Position numbers and translations under genes: made by a program. Below, in pieces: positions 12,396 to 30,981 of a DNA stretch of 33,106 nt; the stretch's first letter is position 1, and each line of letters starts with the position of its first letter. The notes beneath the pieces were generated by a model that saw only the letters and a program-made list of their open reading frames with translations, made no database searches and was not told where the DNA came from. Source of the stretch: a virus; IMG/VR virus record IMGVR_UViG_3300031111_000026, positions 1 to 33,106 of that record; one strand, written 5' to 3'.

Positions 12396-12999
12396 ACCCT
12401 TGCTAGGGGCGGGGCTTAAAAACGCTAAAATCTCCATTTTGGAGCCTTCTCATGCCAAACAGGTATGGAATGTAGATGATTATCTGAAAGTTGTTCCCAA
12501 AGCGTTTGTAAAAAGCTGGAGAGCACACCTTGTTCAATTCTATGAGCCGCTACTTCCAGAAGGGGGAATTGGTATAGATACAGGTGTCAATATGGGGTTG
12601 GCATTTATCATGTCTGAGGATGTCGCATTCACGTTGGGGCTTACGCTAAATCGCAAACCTTTTGATTCTGTACAAGTGATGCGGTTTATCAATAACATCC
12701 CTACTGTGTTTCCTGACCGACTTCCTAAGAAAACCCCTGTACTGGTTGAAGGAGCGGCGTATGGTGCGAAGGGGCAACAAGCCTTGCTCGGTCAAATTCG
12801 TGCCGCTTTGTTGTTAGGGTTCGACCAGAATGGATTTGAAACTGTAATTGAAATGCCGCCACTATCAATTCGCAAACGTTGTTTTGGTAGTGCTAAAATC
12901 AAAGCATTAGATTTTTGGGAAAATGACAGAAGCATGAGACCAGTTTGGAAGTCGCATGAAGCAGACGCCCTGAGCATGGCGATTGTGGCGGGTATATAA
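12388..12999 (+). CDS. RuvC-like Holliday-junction nuclease
   Basis: 203 residues from the ATG at 12388 with AAGGAGGA nine bases upstream; a longer reading from 12319 would sit inside the recA-like gene and is rejected. It shows the RNase H-fold acidic set: D64 in GIDTG, E121 in VLVEGAAYG followed by KGQ..LGQIR, and D193 in HEADALSMA. PPLSIRKRCFG before the last acid matches the RuvC segment PxxVK. It should cleave branched DNA in recombination or before packaging. The gene lies directly behind the RecA-like ATPase, and its stop is shared with the start of the homing endonuclease (TAATG). Confidence 0.75.
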   Translation: MYEPLLGAGLKNAKISILEPSHAKQVWNVDDYLKVVPKAFVKSWRAHLVQFYEPLLPEGGIGIDTGVNMGLAFIMSEDVAFTLGLTLNRKPFDSVQVMRFINNIPTVFPDRLPKKTPVLVEGAAYGAKGQQALLGQIRAALLLGFDQNGFETVIEMPPLSIRKRCFGSAKIKALDFWENDRSMRPVWKSHEADALSMAIVAGI

Positions 13000-13769
13000 T
13001 GGACTACGTTGCAGGCGTTTATGAAATTGTAGCCCCTAATGGGCATAGATATATTGGAAGTAGTGTGGATTTAGAAAGGCGGGAACAAGACCATTTTAGA
13101 GCCTTAAAAAAGCAAAAACATTACAATCCTGTTTTACAGAAAGCACATAACAAATACAAAAAAAGATTAAAATTCAAAGTCATTATGTATTGTGATAAAG
13201 ACATGACCCTTTTTTGGGAGCAAAAGTTTTTGGATAATTTAAGACCAGAATATAATCTTGTGCGGACTGCTAGTGGTGGTGGTATGTCTGGAGAAAAGTG
13301 TGGAACTTCAAAACTCACTTGGGATGACGTTTATGAGATTAGAGAAAAGTACACTACTGAGAATTATGGGCAACCACAATTAGCTGAGGAATATAATGTA
13401 TCCGATGTTAACATTTCGTGTATTGTTCGCAATGAAACATGGTTTGATGAAGACTATGAAGTTCCCGACACAAAAAAGATTCATGCTAAAAATTCTGGTA
13501 AAGCAAACAAGGGAGAAAATTGTGGAACTTCAAAACTGGTTTGGGATGATGTTTATAAGATTAGAGAAAAGTACACAGCTGGAAATTATACTCATGCACA
13601 ATTAGCTAAGAAATATAATGTAACTAAGGCTAATATTTCGTATATTGTTAGCAACGAAACATGGTTTGATGAAAATTATGAAATTCCAGACGTAAAAAAG
13701 ATTAAGGCTAAAAACGTTAGTAAGAGATGGAAAAAAAGAAAGGAGACTATTGACTTTGGAGAAAAGTAA
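12999..13769 (+). CDS. GIY-YIG homing endonuclease with two repeated DNA-binding modules
   Basis: 256 residues. The N-terminal catalytic domain has GVY (6-8), YIG (18-20), R27 and E74, which match the I-TevI residues Tyr, Arg and metal-binding Glu. Residues 98-161 and 172-235 are near-copies with a 74-residue period: each holds CGTSKL.WDDVY.IREKYT, then a QLA.KYNV....IS.IV helix-turn-helix, then NETWFDE, similar in kind to the IENR/NUMOD modules of homing enzymes. It is a free-standing gene, not in an intron. Its start overlaps the resolvase stop by one base, and the next gene starts within its 3' end. It probably cuts an allele lacking it at this locus and spreads by repair. Confidence 0.88.
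   Translation: MDYVAGVYEIVAPNGHRYIGSSVDLERREQDHFRALKKQKHYNPVLQKAHNKYKKRLKFKVIMYCDKDMTLFWEQKFLDNLRPEYNLVRTASGGGMSGEKCGTSKLTWDDVYEIREKYTTENYGQPQLAEEYNVSDVNISCIVRNETWFDEDYEVPDTKKIHAKNSGKANKGENCGTSKLVWDDVYKIREKYTAGNYTHAQLAKKYNVTKANISYIVSNETWFDENYEIPDVKKIKAKNVSKRWKKRKETIDFGEK
13291..13706 (+). repeat. Two diverged direct repeats inside the homing endonuclease gene, 222-bp period
   Basis: The unit starting at about 13291 recurs at about 13513. DNA identity is clear in blocks, for example GTGGAACTTCAAAACT and TTAGAGAAAAGTACAC occur in both copies at an offset of 222 bases. The copies encode the two 74-residue DNA-binding modules. The period is an exact multiple of three, so copy number can change without breaking the frame. 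Confidence 0.8.
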
Positions 13770-15503: not shown

Positions 15504-15674
15504 ATGACCCTAATTAGACGTTATGTAGAAGAAATAATATTAGTTTCTTGGGGGGTTTTTTCATTTTTATTGATTGATGTGGCTGATGGTTATTTATCAC
15601 TGGGACTTGCTGTTTTCGGTTTAGGAGCCATCGTTGGAGCTATACTAATGGAACAACATCTAAGGGAGCACTAA
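15504..15674 (+). CDS. Small two-span membrane protein, 56 aa
   Basis: Two hydrophobic segments (about residues 11-27 and 31-49) are separated by a short DGY turn, with RR near the N-terminus and REH at the end, a hairpin membrane topology. Small two-span proteins include class II holins, but the gene lies far from the endolysin at 18330, so that role is only a possibility. It ends in TAATG with the glycosyltransferase gene. Confidence 0.55.
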   Translation: MTLIRRYVEEIILVSWGVFSFLLIDVADGYLSLGLAVFGLGAIVGAILMEQHLREH

Positions 15675-16402
15675 TGGGGAAAACAGCCGTAATTCTAACT
15701 AATTATAATATGCCAGAAAAAACAGATGCAATTGTCGGGGCTTTGAAGGCTCAGGGAAACAGTAACTATTATCCTGTTGTTATTGATAATGGTTCTGACC
15801 TTAGAGAACCTAGTAGACATACAGAACTGCGTCTTCCTAAAAACCGCCAAACTACGGCAGGCTGGTTAGCTGGTTGGGATATTGCCAGACACATGGGAAT
15901 CTTCGACAGCTACGTTTTCACAATTACTTCTATTGAAATTCCAGACAAGTATCCAAAAATTATTAGCCGTCTCAGACATACAAGGGCACATAAACCCAAT
16001 GCTGTCATTTTATCTCCCGCCCTTACAGCAAACAGCACTACAGCATGGAAACACATGCACCGACAGGGAGAAGGTCTTAGAAAGACGTGGATGGTAGATA
16101 ATTTATTTGCTTTTTATGATGCTTCATGGTTTGACCATATTGGTGGTTTTGATTATCGTTTTATATATGGTTGGGGAGTAGATTTAGAAACCTCTTATTT
16201 GGCAAGACGGTCTGGACATGATATTTATATTGATGATTCTATCCTTATAAAGAAGACTACAAACATTGGTTACGAAATGAATCGAATGAATATGAGTGCG
16301 GAAGACAGAGTGGCTTTAGCTTCTGCAAATATGGATGAAATTATGACTTTGAAATATGGGGAGAATTGGAGAGATTTGATGTATGAAAAGATTAATTTCT
16401 GA
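15674..16402 (+). CDS. Glycosyltransferase family 2-like protein
   Basis: 242 residues. The N-terminus VILTNYNMPEKTDAIV with VIDNGSD is the GT2 nucleotide-sugar binding start, and the C-terminal part FDHIGGFDYRFIYGWGVDLETSYLARRSG is the acceptor-side signature. Between them, where GT-A enzymes usually have a metal-binding DxD, the sequence reads FTITSIEIP, so the DxD looks absent. The protein is predicted to be soluble. It is coupled upstream by TAATG and overlaps the next gene by 20 bases. It may transfer a sugar to a virion or cell-surface acceptor; the substrate cannot be read. Confidence 0.78.
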   Translation: MGKTAVILTNYNMPEKTDAIVGALKAQGNSNYYPVVIDNGSDLREPSRHTELRLPKNRQTTAGWLAGWDIARHMGIFDSYVFTITSIEIPDKYPKIISRLRHTRAHKPNAVILSPALTANSTTAWKHMHRQGEGLRKTWMVDNLFAFYDASWFDHIGGFDYRFIYGWGVDLETSYLARRSGHDIYIDDSILIKKTTNIGYEMNRMNMSAEDRVALASANMDEIMTLKYGENWRDLMYEKINF

Positions 16403-17204
16403 ATGTCCACATTGTTACGGTAAGCTTGAGCTTGAAGTAACCCCAAAGTTTTATAGGTCGAAATATGACCAACATTTTTTATCTGATATGACCATTTTAT
16501 GTGTAAGTACCCTAGAAGATAGAGCCTTTCCTTTTTTCAAAAAGATGAGAGAACATGCAGACTATCTTGGAGCTGAGTTCTTTTTAGTAGGAGATTGTCC
16601 TACGGAAGAAGCTTACGAAAAGTTACTAGAAATTTCAAGTATGAATATTGCCCACAGACTAATGATGGTAAAGTCTAAAGGTTATATTGAAAGCGTTCTA
16701 ACTTCTGTTTATGAAGACGTCAAAACAACGTGGGCTATGCGGTTAGATGATGATGAAGAAATGAGTAGTGGATTAGTCCAATGGATAAAAGATAGAAAAC
16801 ACATGCAGAGTAAGAAATGGCAAGTTCCGACAATGAACCTTTATTCTCCACAAGAATATTTTGTAGAAAAGCCTCTTTTTCCTGATATACATCTGAGGCT
16901 TTCTACATGGAAAACCCATCCTAAAGTTAGTCGTGTTCATGATGGATTTGCTCTAGCCCCTCTATGCCCATATTCTATTCTACATCATAAATTTGTTATA
17001 AAGCCGTATGAGGAGCGGATTAAAATCGCTGAACGTTATGATTTAATTTCTGAGGGGGCTGGAACGGGAACGCATTTACCTTTTAATCTTCCAGAAGATT
17101 ATTTTACCGACGGAACCTATGTTGCTGATATTTTAGATGGTCGAGTAGTTGATAAACCTATGGATGGGGCTAGAAAAGTAAACTTGACGATTTTAGATAA
17201 ATGA
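16383..17204 (+). CDS. Glycosyltransferase-like protein with N-terminal Cys pair
   Basis: 273 residues. It starts with a short SECPHCYGKLEL zinc-ribbon-like piece, then a GT-A-like body: MTILCVSTLEDRAFPFF, VGDCP, and a WAMRLDDDEE element that fits the metal-binding DxD. Later HLRLSTWKTH and ILHHKF with a following KPYEERI resemble glycosyltransferases of small size. It overlaps the preceding GT2 gene by 20 bases, so the two probably act on the same glycan. The family is less clear than for its neighbour. Confidence 0.6.
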   Translation: MKRLISECPHCYGKLELEVTPKFYRSKYDQHFLSDMTILCVSTLEDRAFPFFKKMREHADYLGAEFFLVGDCPTEEAYEKLLEISSMNIAHRLMMVKSKGYIESVLTSVYEDVKTTWAMRLDDDEEMSSGLVQWIKDRKHMQSKKWQVPTMNLYSPQEYFVEKPLFPDIHLRLSTWKTHPKVSRVHDGFALAPLCPYSILHHKFVIKPYEERIKIAERYDLISEGAGTGTHLPFNLPEDYFTDGTYVADILDGRVVDKPMDGARKVNLTILDK

Positions 17205-17242: not shown

Positions 17243-17542
17243 ATGGAAGGTATGCTTACATTGCAAGCCGCTACAGTTGCACTTGCTTTGCTTGAAGGAG
17301 TTAAATGGCTTTTGAGGAAGTTCGTTTTCAAGAACGATGAATTCAGTTTTCCCGCCGTTTACTACACACTTATGGTTCCATTTTTGACTGCTATTGCTGG
17401 TATCGGTCTAGCCGAAGTAGGTTGGGCTGACCCCATCGTTTATGAGTGGTCTTCCTTGCTACAATGGGGTGTTGCTGTTCTTTTTGAACTCATGTTTTAT
17501 CACATGGGCGTTGAACCTCTCAAAGAACACGCACGGTCTTAA
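17243..17542 (+). CDS. Membrane protein, 99 aa, three hydrophobic segments (holin candidate)
   Basis: GAAAGGAGAAC precedes the start. Hydrophobic segments occur at about residues 5-24, 40-60 and 73-89, separated by charged loops (LRKFVFKNDEF, EVGWADP), with a His/Arg-ending tail. Three spans and this size fit class I holins, and it is the last plus-strand gene next to the convergent lysis module. It is read from the opposite strand to the endolysin, which is unusual for a holin, so the role is inferred. Confidence 0.7.
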   Translation: MEGMLTLQAATVALALLEGVKWLLRKFVFKNDEFSFPAVYYTLMVPFLTAIAGIGLAEVGWADPIVYEWSSLLQWGVAVLFELMFYHMGVEPLKEHARS

Positions 17543-17989: not shown

Positions 17990-18333
17990 CAAACTTTCCT
18001 CATTAGAGACTTCAAGTTTTTTTCGAATTGTTTTTCTAAATTCTTATCCTCAATAAACCTGATAACAAGAATCATGAGGATGGATAATTCAGTATGGATT
18101 CGCATAACAGGAGACCAGTCCTCAAAGGAGAAATTTACAAAAGGAACAATATCTGTAGAAAAACCCAAAATAGTCGAGTAAAAGAAAACACCCGAATAGA
18201 AAAGAAAATAGTGAAACCCTAAGATAACAAAGATTGGGTAAATTGAATACAGAGACCTACTTTTTCTAAGCTTGAGACTGCATATAATAGTGACAAGCCC
18301 TAAAATCCAGCTTGCAATTTGTGTAATACTCAT
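17989..18333 (-). CDS. Membrane protein, 114 aa (holin candidate)
   Basis: It overlaps the endolysin stop by 4 bases (ATGA). Hydrophobic segments occur at about residues 4-20, 28-60 and 80-93, and the C-terminus is strongly basic (KNLEKQFEKNLKSLMRKV), as in many holins. Its position between endolysin and spanin-like gene makes it the best holin candidate in this arm. No family motif was recognised. Confidence 0.65.
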   Translation of the reverse strand: MSITQIASWILGLVTIICSLKLRKSRSLYSIYPIFVILGFHYFLFYSGVFFYSTILGFSTDIVPFVNFSFEDWSPVMRIHTELSILMILVIRFIEDKNLEKQFEKNLKSLMRKV

Positions 18334-19115
18334 TGCTTTTTAGTCACCTTTACGTCGACGTTTGAAGGAACAACTACTTCGATTTCAATTTCGGGCTGTG
18401 GCTCTGGTTCAGTATTAGGCTGGTTGAACATTTTTTGATACAGCTCTTCTGAACCCAACCAACGATTATAGTCTAAGTCCGCACTTTCCGCCCCATAATA
18501 AGACCCCTGACCACGGGAACTTGTCTGATGAATAATGACCCTGCTAGACAAAATACCTACCTTGTTACAACTAGTTAGTAATCCTGTACCGTCATGTTCT
18601 TTTCCAAGATATGTATACATTGCCATCCACCAATAAGCGTCGTTATACCAAGATTGGTTGGACAACATATACCCGCTAACAAAACTTGGACGGGAATAGA
18701 TGATAGGGGTTCTTCCAACCTTTATTTTCAAATATTCAAAACATTCCTGTACTGTTTCTGTTACTCTAGCCTTAGAAAAGTTGTGGTGAAGTTCAACATC
18801 TAAAACAGGAGCACCTTCCCCTAAACCTTTTGAAAAGGCATCGAGAAAGTGGTTCATTTGTCGCTTTACGTCTTCTCCCGGATAAACAACATGATATGCC
18901 ATGCGGGGAATACCGACCCGCTTAGCTTCCGTCCAATTATAAGTCCATTTGTTATCAACGTATCCCCATGAAATCCCGTAACGGATTCCAACAAAATCAA
19001 CTGCTTTTGGTGTAGTTACAGACTTCATTTTATCAAAGTCTGACATACCTTGAAATTGACTGATGTCTAATCCAAAGCGTTTTTCATCTTCTGCGTTTGG
19101 CAACCAAATACCCAT
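18330..19115 (-). CDS. Endolysin, GH25 muramidase
   Basis: 261 residues. The GH25 barrel shows GLDISQFQG (D17), RYGISWGY, AYHVVYPGED, APVLDVELHH (D106, catalytic-pair E108), the IIYSRPSF strand and a late SADLDYNRW. GH25 enzymes cleave the N-acetylmuramic acid beta-1,4 bond of peptidoglycan. The last 35 residues are Pro/Glu- and Val-rich (EPEPQPEIEIEV) and look like a linker or short tail; no known cell-wall-binding repeat is seen. There is no signal peptide, so export needs a holin, and two small membrane proteins follow. The gene begins right after the fused glycosyltransferase gene. Confidence 0.9.
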   Translation of the reverse strand: MGIWLPNAEDEKRFGLDISQFQGMSDFDKMKSVTTPKAVDFVGIRYGISWGYVDNKWTYNWTEAKRVGIPRMAYHVVYPGEDVKRQMNHFLDAFSKGLGEGAPVLDVELHHNFSKARVTETVQECFEYLKIKVGRTPIIYSRPSFVSGYMLSNQSWYNDAYWWMAMYTYLGKEHDGTGLLTSCNKVGILSSRVIIHQTSSRGQGSYYGAESADLDYNRWLGSEELYQKMFNQPNTEPEPQPEIEIEVVVPSNVDVKVTKKQ

Positions 19116-20363
19116 TTAATTTTCCTTTACATAATTAGAATACTCTTCCCAATTTGCTAAGTCGTAATAATACCTTAGCGGGAAAGTTTCTAATCCAAAT
19201 TTTTGAATTGCTAGATTAATGGCGTCGGTGTAATTATCTATTTTTACGCTTTTCCAATAATCTACTACTTCTTTACTCCATATAAGAGTTCCCCAAGCCC
19301 TGTATGTTCCTTGCTCTAATTTTACTTTATTTACCACTTGTCTGTCCAATAACACCCCAAACCGTTCAGGTATTTTTGTTTCGAAAACTCCCAAATAAAA
19401 AGGGTTTGTAAGAACTTCTGGAAAGGCATTGACTGATGGGATAATTGTATCTGGCATGGAAAACAAGTTATATTCATAGCTATAGGGGAAAGAGGTTTTT
19501 ATAGCTCCCCAAATATCCTGCTCATGTTTTTGTAGGGAAAAGGCTATATTATAAGGAAGATGCTGTGTAGCCATAATGTGCTGAGAAATTTTTTCTGGGG
19601 ACGTTATAATAAGATTGGCGTCACAGTCGAGTGTTTTAATCGTTCTTTCTAATAGCCATTCTTTTTCTCCAATAGGAAGTAATTCTTTTGCAAATCCGCC
19701 CCATCTAGAGCCTTTGCCTGCGGCGGGAATAATGCCCATACGAGTAGTCTCAAGGGAGTGTTTCTTCTGTAAATATTGTTTGTTGTTTGTCCATGCTTCA
19801 AGCTGAGAATTTTTTATAGTTTTTCTATCTTTTTCTAGATGAGCTAATCCGAATAATTTTCTATCAATAAGATTTAGCGGAAAGCCCGCCGCTACTGCTC
19901 GTAAAGAATAATCAGCATCTTCATAATACATAGGTGCAAAGTGCTCATCAAAATTACCTACAGTTTTCCATAATTCAGGAGAGCCTACCAAAGCCCAACT
20001 ACTTAGAAAAGAATGCTCACTAATTCCCCTTATACAAAAACCGTTGAGACTGGAAGCTTTCAATAGGTCTTCGTTTAGTGGATGTTCTACAATAACGTCA
20101 TTATTGACAGGTAAAATCCATTCAATTCTTTCAAACCCAAGGGCGGTTTGTATTCCGATGTTTAGGGCTGATGGAAAGGGAATAATTTTTTCTGAACGCA
20201 CTTTTTTTGTTACTGTTGGGTGTTCGGGATAAGCTGGAATTGAGCCATTATCTACCAAAACAACTTTAGCTGTGGGTTCATGCTTTGCAATAGAAGAAAG
20301 AAAGGGAAGAGTAAATTCTTCCCATTCATTTATTCCAATAATTACAAAACACAAATTATTCAT
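19116..20363 (-). CDS. Fused GT2 glycosyltransferase and sugar-1-phosphate nucleotidyltransferase
   Basis: 415 residues in two parts. Residues 1-205 are a GT2 domain: LVDNGS (36-41), LPVNNDV (84-90) in the DxD position, and GNFDEHFAPMYYEDADYSLRA (the acceptor signature). Residues 208-415 begin MGIIPAAGKGSRWGGFAKELLPI, the nucleotidyltransferase signature with Gly-rich loop, R220 and K226, followed by FSMPDTII (D305) and a late WG motif. Such enzymes load NTP onto a sugar 1-phosphate. The fusion could make and use its own NDP-sugar. It overlaps the small upstream gene by 8 bases and abuts the endolysin, inside the tail/lysis region. The donor and acceptor are unknown. Confidence 0.82.
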   Translation of the reverse strand: MNNLCFVIIGINEWEEFTLPFLSSIAKHEPTAKVVLVDNGSIPAYPEHPTVTKKVRSEKIIPFPSALNIGIQTALGFERIEWILPVNNDVIVEHPLNEDLLKASSLNGFCIRGISEHSFLSSWALVGSPELWKTVGNFDEHFAPMYYEDADYSLRAVAAGFPLNLIDRKLFGLAHLEKDRKTIKNSQLEAWTNNKQYLQKKHSLETTRMGIIPAAGKGSRWGGFAKELLPIGEKEWLLERTIKTLDCDANLIITSPEKISQHIMATQHLPYNIAFSLQKHEQDIWGAIKTSFPYSYEYNLFSMPDTIIPSVNAFPEVLTNPFYLGVFETKIPERFGVLLDRQVVNKVKLEQGTYRAWGTLIWSKEVVDYWKSVKIDNYTDAINLAIQKFGLETFPLRYYYDLANWEEYSNYVKEN

Positions 20364-20583
20364 AGGCTAATAAAGCTTGTAGTTCAGGGTCATAAATACT
20401 AATAGCTACCCCAACATCAGGAGGAGCTTCTCGTTCGATAGAAGCGGAGGCATTAGCGTCAGGGTCATAATTAGCATTTGCCGCTCCACTTACTTCTGAA
20501 TAAGAATAAAGGTCATAAGCTGTCTTATCTACTGTATAACCGTTATCCATACTTGTTCCAACTGGAATATATCCTAAAATCAT
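20356..20583 (-). CDS. Small tail-region protein, 75 aa
   Basis: It starts in a TAATG overlap with the upstream gene. It is acidic and rich in Tyr, Asp, Ala and Pro (NYDPDANASASIEREAPP), mostly disordered in appearance, with no membrane segment. Position suggests a minor virion protein or tail accessory factor. The function is unknown. Confidence 0.6.
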   Translation of the reverse strand: MILGYIPVGTSMDNGYTVDKTAYDLYSYSEVSGAANANYDPDANASASIEREAPPDVGVAISIYDPELQALLAYE

Positions 20584-29787: not shown

Positions 29788-30951
29788 TTAATCCTCCAAA
29801 TAATTACGTCTCCCCTCAGTCCTTTCGTATGCTTTTTTAAGCGCAGGTTTCCAGTATTTATCTATAATTATATCAGGATGATAATTTTCTTCAACCCATT
29901 TTGAAGCCTCTTTGCCCTTCCTGATTCGTTCTGATTCAGACATACCATAGAAATAATTCATAGAGTTAATCAATTCATTAACATTAGGAATTTTTTGGTA
30001 TGAATCTTGATTTGTATAAACAAGTTGTCCATCTACAGCAAGTCCGTAATGACATAGTTCAGGCATAGCTGTCCAATCCGTGACAATCACAGGAAGTCCA
30101 CTTGCTTGCGCCTCGATGATTGGAACGCCAAAACCTTCTCCTCTTGCAGGGTTCATGAAAACATCAGACGCCGCATAAATACTATGAACTACATCAGTTG
30201 GTTGTCCTATAATGTAATCATATTTATCGGAAAATATGAGCTTATCATTAGGAATACCAATGTTTTTAGCCATTGTTCTGAGATTAATCCCCCAAGAAGC
30301 GTTATAGTCTGTGTGAATGTACAACAAAGCATCTGTGTGCTTTTTTTGAAACTGATTAAATGCTTTGAAAACTTCAGCAAAAGACTTTCTTGAAGGATAG
30401 CCTTTGTTAGCCGCTACCATTGTTACCACAAAACGGTCATCCCAACCAAACATTTTTCTCAGGTCTTTACGATTAACTGGCTTTAGATATTCTAATTCAA
30501 CTCCATGTGGGGCGTACAAGGGGTCAAAACCAGCTTCTAACAGTTTTTTCTCCCCAAACCTAGACATCGCTAGGGGTACTGGATTTCCGTTTGTTAGACT
30601 TTCAAATACGGGTTTTGGAATAGGGTCATGGTCAATAGGTATCCACGCTAACCAAGGTAGCTTTTTTACGATAGCAGGATTTAGTACCCAAATATCCAGT
30701 AGTGTAATGAGTAAGTCTGCTCTAGAAAACTTACAATGGGCGGAAATTACGTCATTTCCATAGCTGTCTGCGTAACCCGGTAAAACTAAAACGTCTCCTA
30801 GTTGAAGGCGGTTCCCATTCAACCCCCAAAAAGCGGATATTGTTACTTCATAATCTTCTAACTTACTGATACGCTCAGTAAAAAGCTTTGTCTGAACACC
30901 ATATCCAGTCAAAGCCCATGGAGCATTAGAATGCCATAAAATTCTTTTCAT
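29788..30951 (-). CDS. GT4-type glycosyltransferase inside the head-tail module
   Basis: 387 residues from the ATG at 30951 with AGGAGG upstream. The GT-B fold shows an N-terminal ILWHSNAPWALTGYGVQT with the glycine-rich loop, a central VVTMVAANKGYPSRKSF strand, and the C-terminal donor site ARGEGFGVPIIEAQASGLPVIV with the EX7E acids typical of GT4. It has no membrane segment. It lies after a terminator that follows the capsid and decoration genes and before the adaptor, so it is not a tail-fibre neighbour; it may glycosylate a virion protein or act on host or phage glycans. It is one of four sugar-transfer genes here. Confidence 0.85.
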   Translation of the reverse strand: MKRILWHSNAPWALTGYGVQTKLFTERISKLEDYEVTISAFWGLNGNRLQLGDVLVLPGYADSYGNDVISAHCKFSRADLLITLLDIWVLNPAIVKKLPWLAWIPIDHDPIPKPVFESLTNGNPVPLAMSRFGEKKLLEAGFDPLYAPHGVELEYLKPVNRKDLRKMFGWDDRFVVTMVAANKGYPSRKSFAEVFKAFNQFQKKHTDALLYIHTDYNASWGINLRTMAKNIGIPNDKLIFSDKYDYIIGQPTDVVHSIYAASDVFMNPARGEGFGVPIIEAQASGLPVIVTDWTAMPELCHYGLAVDGQLVYTNQDSYQKIPNVNELINSMNYFYGMSESERIRKGKEASKWVEENYHPDIIIDKYWKPALKKAYERTEGRRNYLED

Positions 30952-30981
30952 TTTCCTCCTTTCAAGTTCAGACAAAATAAA

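What the first reader, a model, noticed from the sequence alone, without database searches (positions are those of the whole stretch)
19116..20363. Fusion of a GT2 glycosyltransferase with a sugar-1-phosphate nucleotidyltransferase, next to the endolysin
The N-terminal half has the GT2 start (VDNGS) and acceptor signature; the C-terminal half begins with the nucleotidyltransferase signature GIIPAAGKGSR..KELLPI. One polypeptide might activate a sugar and transfer it. I do not know of this pairing as a common phage protein. Its place among tail and lysis genes suggests a virion or host-envelope target.
Basis: partly seen in the sequence, partly recalled or inferred. Interest (0 to 1): 0.65.

Follow-up and report, generated by a model that had tools for sequence, protein, structure and literature searches.

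The report
Phage sugar-activating and sugar-transferring fusion enzyme
A phage gene next to the lysis genes encodes one protein made of a sugar-transferring enzyme joined to a sugar-activating enzyme, two parts that related uncultured phages encode as neighbouring genes, so it probably makes an activated sugar and attaches it to the virion or the host surface.

Summary
Window 19116-20363(-) is one 415-aa ORF. Residues 1-208 are a small GT-A/GT2 glycosyltransferase. Residues 209-415 are a complete RmlA-like sugar-1-phosphate nucleotidyltransferase (NTase). AlphaFold2 gives pLDDT 92 and 95; the best PDB matches are GT-A glycosyltransferases and RmlA. The two domains exist as separate genes in other uncultured phages: I found 35 distinct NTases, none of them fused. 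In 27 of the 35 loci a GT2 of the same family lies on the same contig and strand, and in 11 it overlaps the NTase start, mostly by 4 or 8 nt. So the window protein is a fusion of a recurrent phage gene pair, seen once. The NTase family was not found in 50,697 phage GenBank records. A sequencing error cannot be excluded: one missed base upstream of residue 205 could join the genes. But the GT2 tail is in frame and of the same length as in two relatives, and no single edit after residue 205 separates the two. Most likely function: a bifunctional enzyme that makes an NDP-sugar and transfers it, probably to a virion protein. Sugar, nucleotide and acceptor are unknown. Verdict: new domain fusion of known enzyme families, moderate interest.

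The parts
19116..20363 (-). 415-aa fused GT2 + sugar-1-phosphate nucleotidyltransferase gene
   Evidence: Single ORF. It is the only ORF among all loci fetched that matches both family profiles.
19740..20363 (-). GT2 (GT-A fold) domain, residues 1-208: VDNGS 37-41, NND 87-89 (DXD position), ED.D 148-151, His175
   Evidence: Profile A7, pLDDT 92.0. PDB matches GalNAc-T2, WrtF, 6p61. D89, D149 and H175 are invariant in 23 rows.
19119..19739 (-). RmlA-like nucleotidyltransferase domain, residues 209-415: GIIPAAGKGSR 210-220, KELLP 226-230, MPDT 303-306, PERFGV 332-337, VVNK 343-346, YYDLA 399-403
   Evidence: 42-50% identity to the first standalone phage NTases aligned. pLDDT 95.4. Foldseek best hit 3hl3 E=5.5e-13, TM 0.84. 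hhalign to E. coli RfbA prob 97%.
19737..19760 (-). Fusion junction HSLETTR|M209, with no added linker
   Evidence: GT2 tail length equals that of L017 (HGLERVK*) and L009 (HNLEWKK*); M209 sits at the standalone NTase start.
18330..19115 (-). GH25 endolysin, next gene downstream (context)
   Evidence: Pfam PF01183 E=6.2e-22.
20356..20583 (-). 75-aa ORF upstream; its end overlaps the fusion start by 8 nt (context)
   Evidence: ORF coordinates; no family hit at a meaningful E-value.

Best explanation
The gene encodes a soluble bifunctional enzyme. The C-terminal RmlA-like domain condenses a sugar-1-phosphate with an NTP (probably UTP or dTTP; inferred) to an NDP-sugar plus pyrophosphate. The N-terminal GT2 domain transfers that sugar to an acceptor. 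The two correspond to separate, often overlapping neighbouring genes in the glycan cassettes of other phages, and became one ORF when the GT2 stop was lost and the NTase start came into frame. Made with the late genes, the enzyme most likely helps glycosylate a virion protein; a host-envelope glycan is the main alternative acceptor. Shown here: domain identity, predicted fold, conserved motif residues, recurrent gene pairing, single ORF. Inferred: catalysis, coupling of the two reactions, nucleotide and sugar identity, acceptor.
For: Single ORF. Both halves have full-length standalone homologues. NTase model pLDDT 95.4, best PDB matches RmlA. GT model pLDDT 92, best matches GT-A glycosyltransferases. 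RmlA motif positions G-G-R, K, D and PERFGV align with E. coli RfbA; R220, K226, D305, K346 and D401 are invariant across 25 rows. 27 of 35 distinct NTases have a GT2 of the same family on the same contig and strand; 11 overlap the NTase start (4 nt in four, 8 nt in five, 11 and 35 nt in one each). Separate NTase and GT2 scans of 2.9 million contigs returned 11 of the same contigs. Cassette neighbours in relatives include NeuB, CTP_transf_3, FkbM methyltransferase and MptE-like genes, and phage structural genes by inspection.
Against: The fusion is seen in one assembled contig only. A single missed base upstream of residue 205 could create it artificially. The trees place the two halves beside different relatives: GT2 with L020, NTase with L009/L013/L010 (AU p 0.002-0.03 against the alternatives, chosen after seeing the trees); so the pair was not inherited together from one sampled relative. 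No full-length model was made. A late-operon position does not identify the acceptor.
Confidence: 0.66

Rival explanations
1. Assembly or sequencing artefact: the phage has two genes, GT2 and NTase, and one missed base joined them. The function is the same, carried by two proteins.
For: Relatives have exactly this gene pair, often out of frame with a short overlap. An alternative frame has a stop 13 nt upstream of ATG209, and 132 of 180 tested single-base insertions in the last 45 nt would give two ORFs.
Against: The GT2 tail HSLETTR is in frame and of the same length as HGLERVK* and HNLEWKK* in relatives, with the LE shared. After residue 205, 0 of 72 single-base edits give a stop near ATG209. 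ATG209 falls in frame exactly at the junction.
Confidence: 0.15
2. The fusion is real, but the two domains act on different sugars. The NTase supplies an NDP-sugar to another glycosyltransferase of the phage, and the joining only sets stoichiometry.
For: The window has further glycosyltransferase-like genes at 29788-30975(-) (GT4), and GT2-like ones at 15674-16402(+) and 16383-17204(+) (by motif; weak hits). In some relatives the pair is separated by 0.2-5 kb.
Against: Repeated direct adjacency of this GT2 family and this NTase family, and their fusion here.
Confidence: 0.12
3. The enzyme modifies phage DNA (glycosylated hypermodified bases) rather than protein or envelope.
For: Phage glycosyltransferases that glycosylate DNA are known (discussed in PMC12619734).
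Against: I recognised no dCMP/dUMP hydroxymethylase or thymidylate-synthase-like gene in the ORF list (by eye only), and the gene lies among late structural and lysis genes, not replication genes.
Confidence: 0.05

Closest known systems
RmlA / RfbA glucose-1-phosphate thymidylyltransferase (NTP_transferase superfamily)
   Same: Fold (3hl3 TM 0.84 by query length); G-G-R, K, D, PERFGV and following Lys positions align.
   Different: About 20% identity in the structural alignment. The family is about 207 aa against about 290 aa for RmlA. Substrate not tested.
GT2 family glycosyltransferases (e.g. Leptospira 6p61, WrtF 9om*, GalNAc-T catalytic domain)
   Same: GT-A fold, DNGS, DXD-like NND, ED.D and His motifs; other family members hit Glycos_transf_2 down to E=5.7e-11.
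   Different: Very compact (about 205 aa); the window's own domain has no Pfam GT2 hit; fused to an NTase.
Separate GT2 + NTase gene pair in uncultured phages (e.g. L013, L016, L030)
   Same: Same two families, same order, both full length, overlapping by 4-8 nt.
   Different: Two ORFs instead of one.
NDP-sugar NTase + GTase clusters of jumbo cyanophages (PMC7824862)
   Same: Phage clusters combining NDP-sugar synthesis with glycosyltransferases.
   Different: Those NTases are of the HIGH superfamily, a different fold, in separate genes; interpreted there as capsular polysaccharide modification.
Virion glycosylation in mycobacteriophages (Freeman et al. 2023, as cited in PMC12619734 and PMC12691614)
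   Same: Glycosylation of phage capsid or tail-tube subunits is the nearest precedent for the proposed acceptor class.
   Different: The enzymes there were not compared with this one, and no fused NTase is mentioned in the passages read.

Membership tests
GT2 / GT-A glycosyltransferase | GT-A Rossmann-like fold | tested here: met
   AlphaFold2 pLDDT 92; top Foldseek matches are GT-A glycosyltransferases, E about 3e-8.
GT2 / GT-A glycosyltransferase | Nucleotide- and metal-binding motif (DXD-like) and ED.D acceptor-side acid | tested here: met
   D38 in 21/23, N87 22/23, D89 23/23, D149 23/23, D151 22/23, H175 23/23.
GT2 / GT-A glycosyltransferase | Match to the curated Pfam GT2 profile | tested here: inconclusive
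   Window domain has no Pfam GT2 hit; 5 of 8 family members do, best E=5.7e-11.
GT2 / GT-A glycosyltransferase | Glycosyl transfer activity | not testable with these tools
   Needs an assay.
RmlA/GalU-like sugar-1-phosphate nucleotidyltransferase | Fold | tested here: met
   pLDDT 95.4; Foldseek 3hl3 E=5.5e-13, prob 1.00.
RmlA/GalU-like sugar-1-phosphate nucleotidyltransferase | Catalytic motifs: GxGxR, Lys after it, metal Asp, PERFGV region, Lys, C-terminal Asp | tested here: met
   R220, K226, D305, K346, D401 invariant in 25 rows. The motifs up to the Lys after PERFGV align to E. coli RfbA and 3hl3; D401 as the second metal Asp is inferred from the motif only.
RmlA/GalU-like sugar-1-phosphate nucleotidyltransferase | Curated family cut-off (Pfam/NCBIfam) | tested here: not met
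   PF12804 24.6 bits against a cut-off of 27; NCBIfam far below. So a superfamily member by fold and motifs, not a member of a named equivalog.
RmlA/GalU-like sugar-1-phosphate nucleotidyltransferase | NTP and sugar specificity | not testable with these tools
   Needs an assay.

The most novel reading that the evidence does not exclude
A natural glycosyltransferase-pyrophosphorylase fusion in which NDP-sugar synthesis and transfer are coupled within one polypeptide, marking an undescribed phage enzyme pair that decorates virions with a phage-made sugar.
Probability: 0.4. Interest if true: 0.6.

Novelty: new variant of a known kind. Interest (0 to 1): 0.4.

Why it matters
The fusion links two families that recur as a gene pair in uncultured phages: if they act on the same sugar, the pair is a self-contained module for making and attaching a sugar. 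The NTase family had no match in 50,697 GenBank phage records at the thresholds used, and only weak hits in PHROGs. A single-protein module is convenient for identifying nucleotide, sugar and acceptor, and so for asking why phages carry such cassettes among their structural genes.

Tried and rejected
Single-sequence searches of PDB chains with either half gave only chance hits; profiles were needed. The first protein-based scan of viral contigs found nothing; a degenerate DNA pattern for the NTase signature gave the first relatives. Aligning the full protein with both sets of relatives failed, because MAFFT laid GT2 rows on the NTase half, so the domains were modelled separately and no full-length model exists. 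L022 (Anaerolineales MAG) first looked like a second fusion by length, but its first ~125 residues read as an out-of-frame translation before the NTase, so it is not counted. The genome search could not be used for relatives of a virus record or with a locus as centre. A scan for close relatives of the window phage through a 648-aa tail-region protein found none. Paper searches found no description of a natural fusion of this kind; the library is open-access only.

Full report
The ORF at window 19116-20363 on the minus strand is real and uninterrupted: 415 codons from ATG to stop. The next gene, starting directly after its stop codon, is a GH25 endolysin. Upstream on the same strand are tail, tape-measure, major tail, head-tail connector, capsid and scaffold genes, so the gene sits at the end of the late structural block and just before lysis. 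The window is a 33-kb viral record whose capsid protein is closest to Microcystis phage Mae-JY09 (44%) and Pelagibacter phages (33-36%).

Single-sequence searches are weak: NTP_transf_3 at E=9e-5 for the C half, a PHROG galactosyl transferase at E=1.4e-11 for the N half, nothing meaningful in PDB chains, and no NTase relative in GenBank phages. A degenerate DNA pattern for the NTase signature found the first relatives in IMG/VR. These are full-length standalone proteins of about 200-235 aa; the first four distinct ones are 42-50% identical to the window's C half. Profiles from these found more and, separately, the relatives of the N half.

Structure prediction on the two domain alignments was confident. 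The NTase half gave mean pLDDT 95.4 and pTM 0.91. Its best PDB matches are glucose-1-phosphate thymidylyltransferases, 3hl3 at E=5.5e-13 and TM 0.84. The GT half gave pLDDT 92.0 and pTM 0.89, with GalNAc-T2, WrtF and other GT-A enzymes on top. The motif residues expected of both enzymes are conserved: R220, K226, D305, K346 and D401 are invariant in 25 NTases; D89, D149 and H175 are invariant in 23 GT2s. Profile comparison with E. coli RfbA aligns G-G-R, K, D and PERFGV. PERFGV with a following Lys is shared with RmlA, which is why I read the substrate as a sugar-1-phosphate; which sugar and which NTP remain open.

The gene context of the relatives explains the fusion. Among 35 distinct NTase ORFs (two of them probably pieces of one broken gene in L108), 27 have a GT2 of the N-half family on the same locus and strand, and in 11 the GT2 lies directly upstream and overlaps the NTase start by 4-35 nt, usually 4 or 8. 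Loci are cut at contig ends and flanks, so 27 is a lower bound. Two of the 35 came only from the GT2 search and are biased towards pairing. Scans with the NTase and GT2 alignments, run separately over 2.9 million contigs, returned 26 and 41 loci and shared 11 contigs. Only the window ORF matches both profiles. Cassette neighbours include NeuB, CTP_transf_3, FkbM methyltransferase and MptE-like genes; the cassettes lie among terminase, portal, capsid or tail genes in several loci (by inspection). No NTase relative was found in the GenBank phage set with four queries. One pattern-limited scan of bacterial and archaeal genomes returned two loci, one of which has a terminase-like ORF nearby and looks like phage sequence (by eye).

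Is the fusion an artefact? The join is at HSLETTR|M209. GT2 relatives L017 and L009 end HGLERVK* and HNLEWKK*, the same length with the same LE, and M209 is where standalone NTases start. No single-base edit after residue 205 would give two separate ORFs (0 of 72). Upstream, however, another frame has a stop 13 nt before ATG209, and 132 of 180 single-base insertions, 10 of 135 substitutions and 0 of 45 deletions in the last 45 nt would. One missed base is therefore possible, but it would make the in-frame HxLE match a coincidence. I put the artefact at about 15%.

The two halves have different nearest relatives: NTase with L009/L013/L010 and kin, GT2 with L020. AU tests disfavour the swapped placements (p 0.002, 0.019, 0.030), though the groups were chosen after seeing the trees and branches are long. 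This fits modular exchange before or after joining and is a caution against a simple 'neighbours fused in place' story.

Function. Recurrent adjacency plus one fusion is the classical sign of two proteins acting in one pathway (inference). The simplest mechanism is NDP-sugar synthesis by the C domain and transfer by the N domain. The acceptor is open. The late-gene position and the precedent of glycosylated capsid and tail-tube subunits in mycobacteriophages (Freeman et al. 2023 as cited in PMC12619734 and PMC12691614) favour a virion protein; modification of a host polysaccharide, as proposed for NTase/GT clusters of jumbo cyanophages (PMC7824862), is the main alternative. I did not run a transmembrane predictor; the models are globular.

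Verdict: observation confirmed; interpretation partly supported. Both parts belong to known enzyme superfamilies and the two-gene pair exists elsewhere, so the novelty is the domain architecture and the recognition of the pair.

Noticed in passing
window 29788-30975 (-): GT4-family glycosyltransferase (Glyco_trans_1_4 E=2.5e-14; PHROG glycosyltransferase E=2.9e-31) lying between capsid-region and head-tail connector genes.
   Followed up: partly
window 15674-16402 and 16383-17204 (+): Two overlapping ORFs that look GT2-like by eye (VIDNGSD and GGFDYRF; LDDDEEM) but have only weak library hits; they precede a small membrane-like ORF at 17243-17542.
   Followed up: no
L009:2237-8213: A relative's phage cassette holds NeuB, CTP_transf_3, MptE-like and FkbM methyltransferase genes around the NTase and GT2, suggesting phage-encoded synthesis of a nonulosonic-acid-like sugar.
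   Followed up: partly
window 12999-13769 (+): GIY-YIG-endonuclease-like ORF with an internally repeated segment, seen by eye in the translation.
   Followed up: no
L108:676-1201: NTase split over two overlapping ORFs (103 and 83 aa) with a short GT2 fragment upstream: a decayed or mis-assembled copy of the pair.
   Followed up: no
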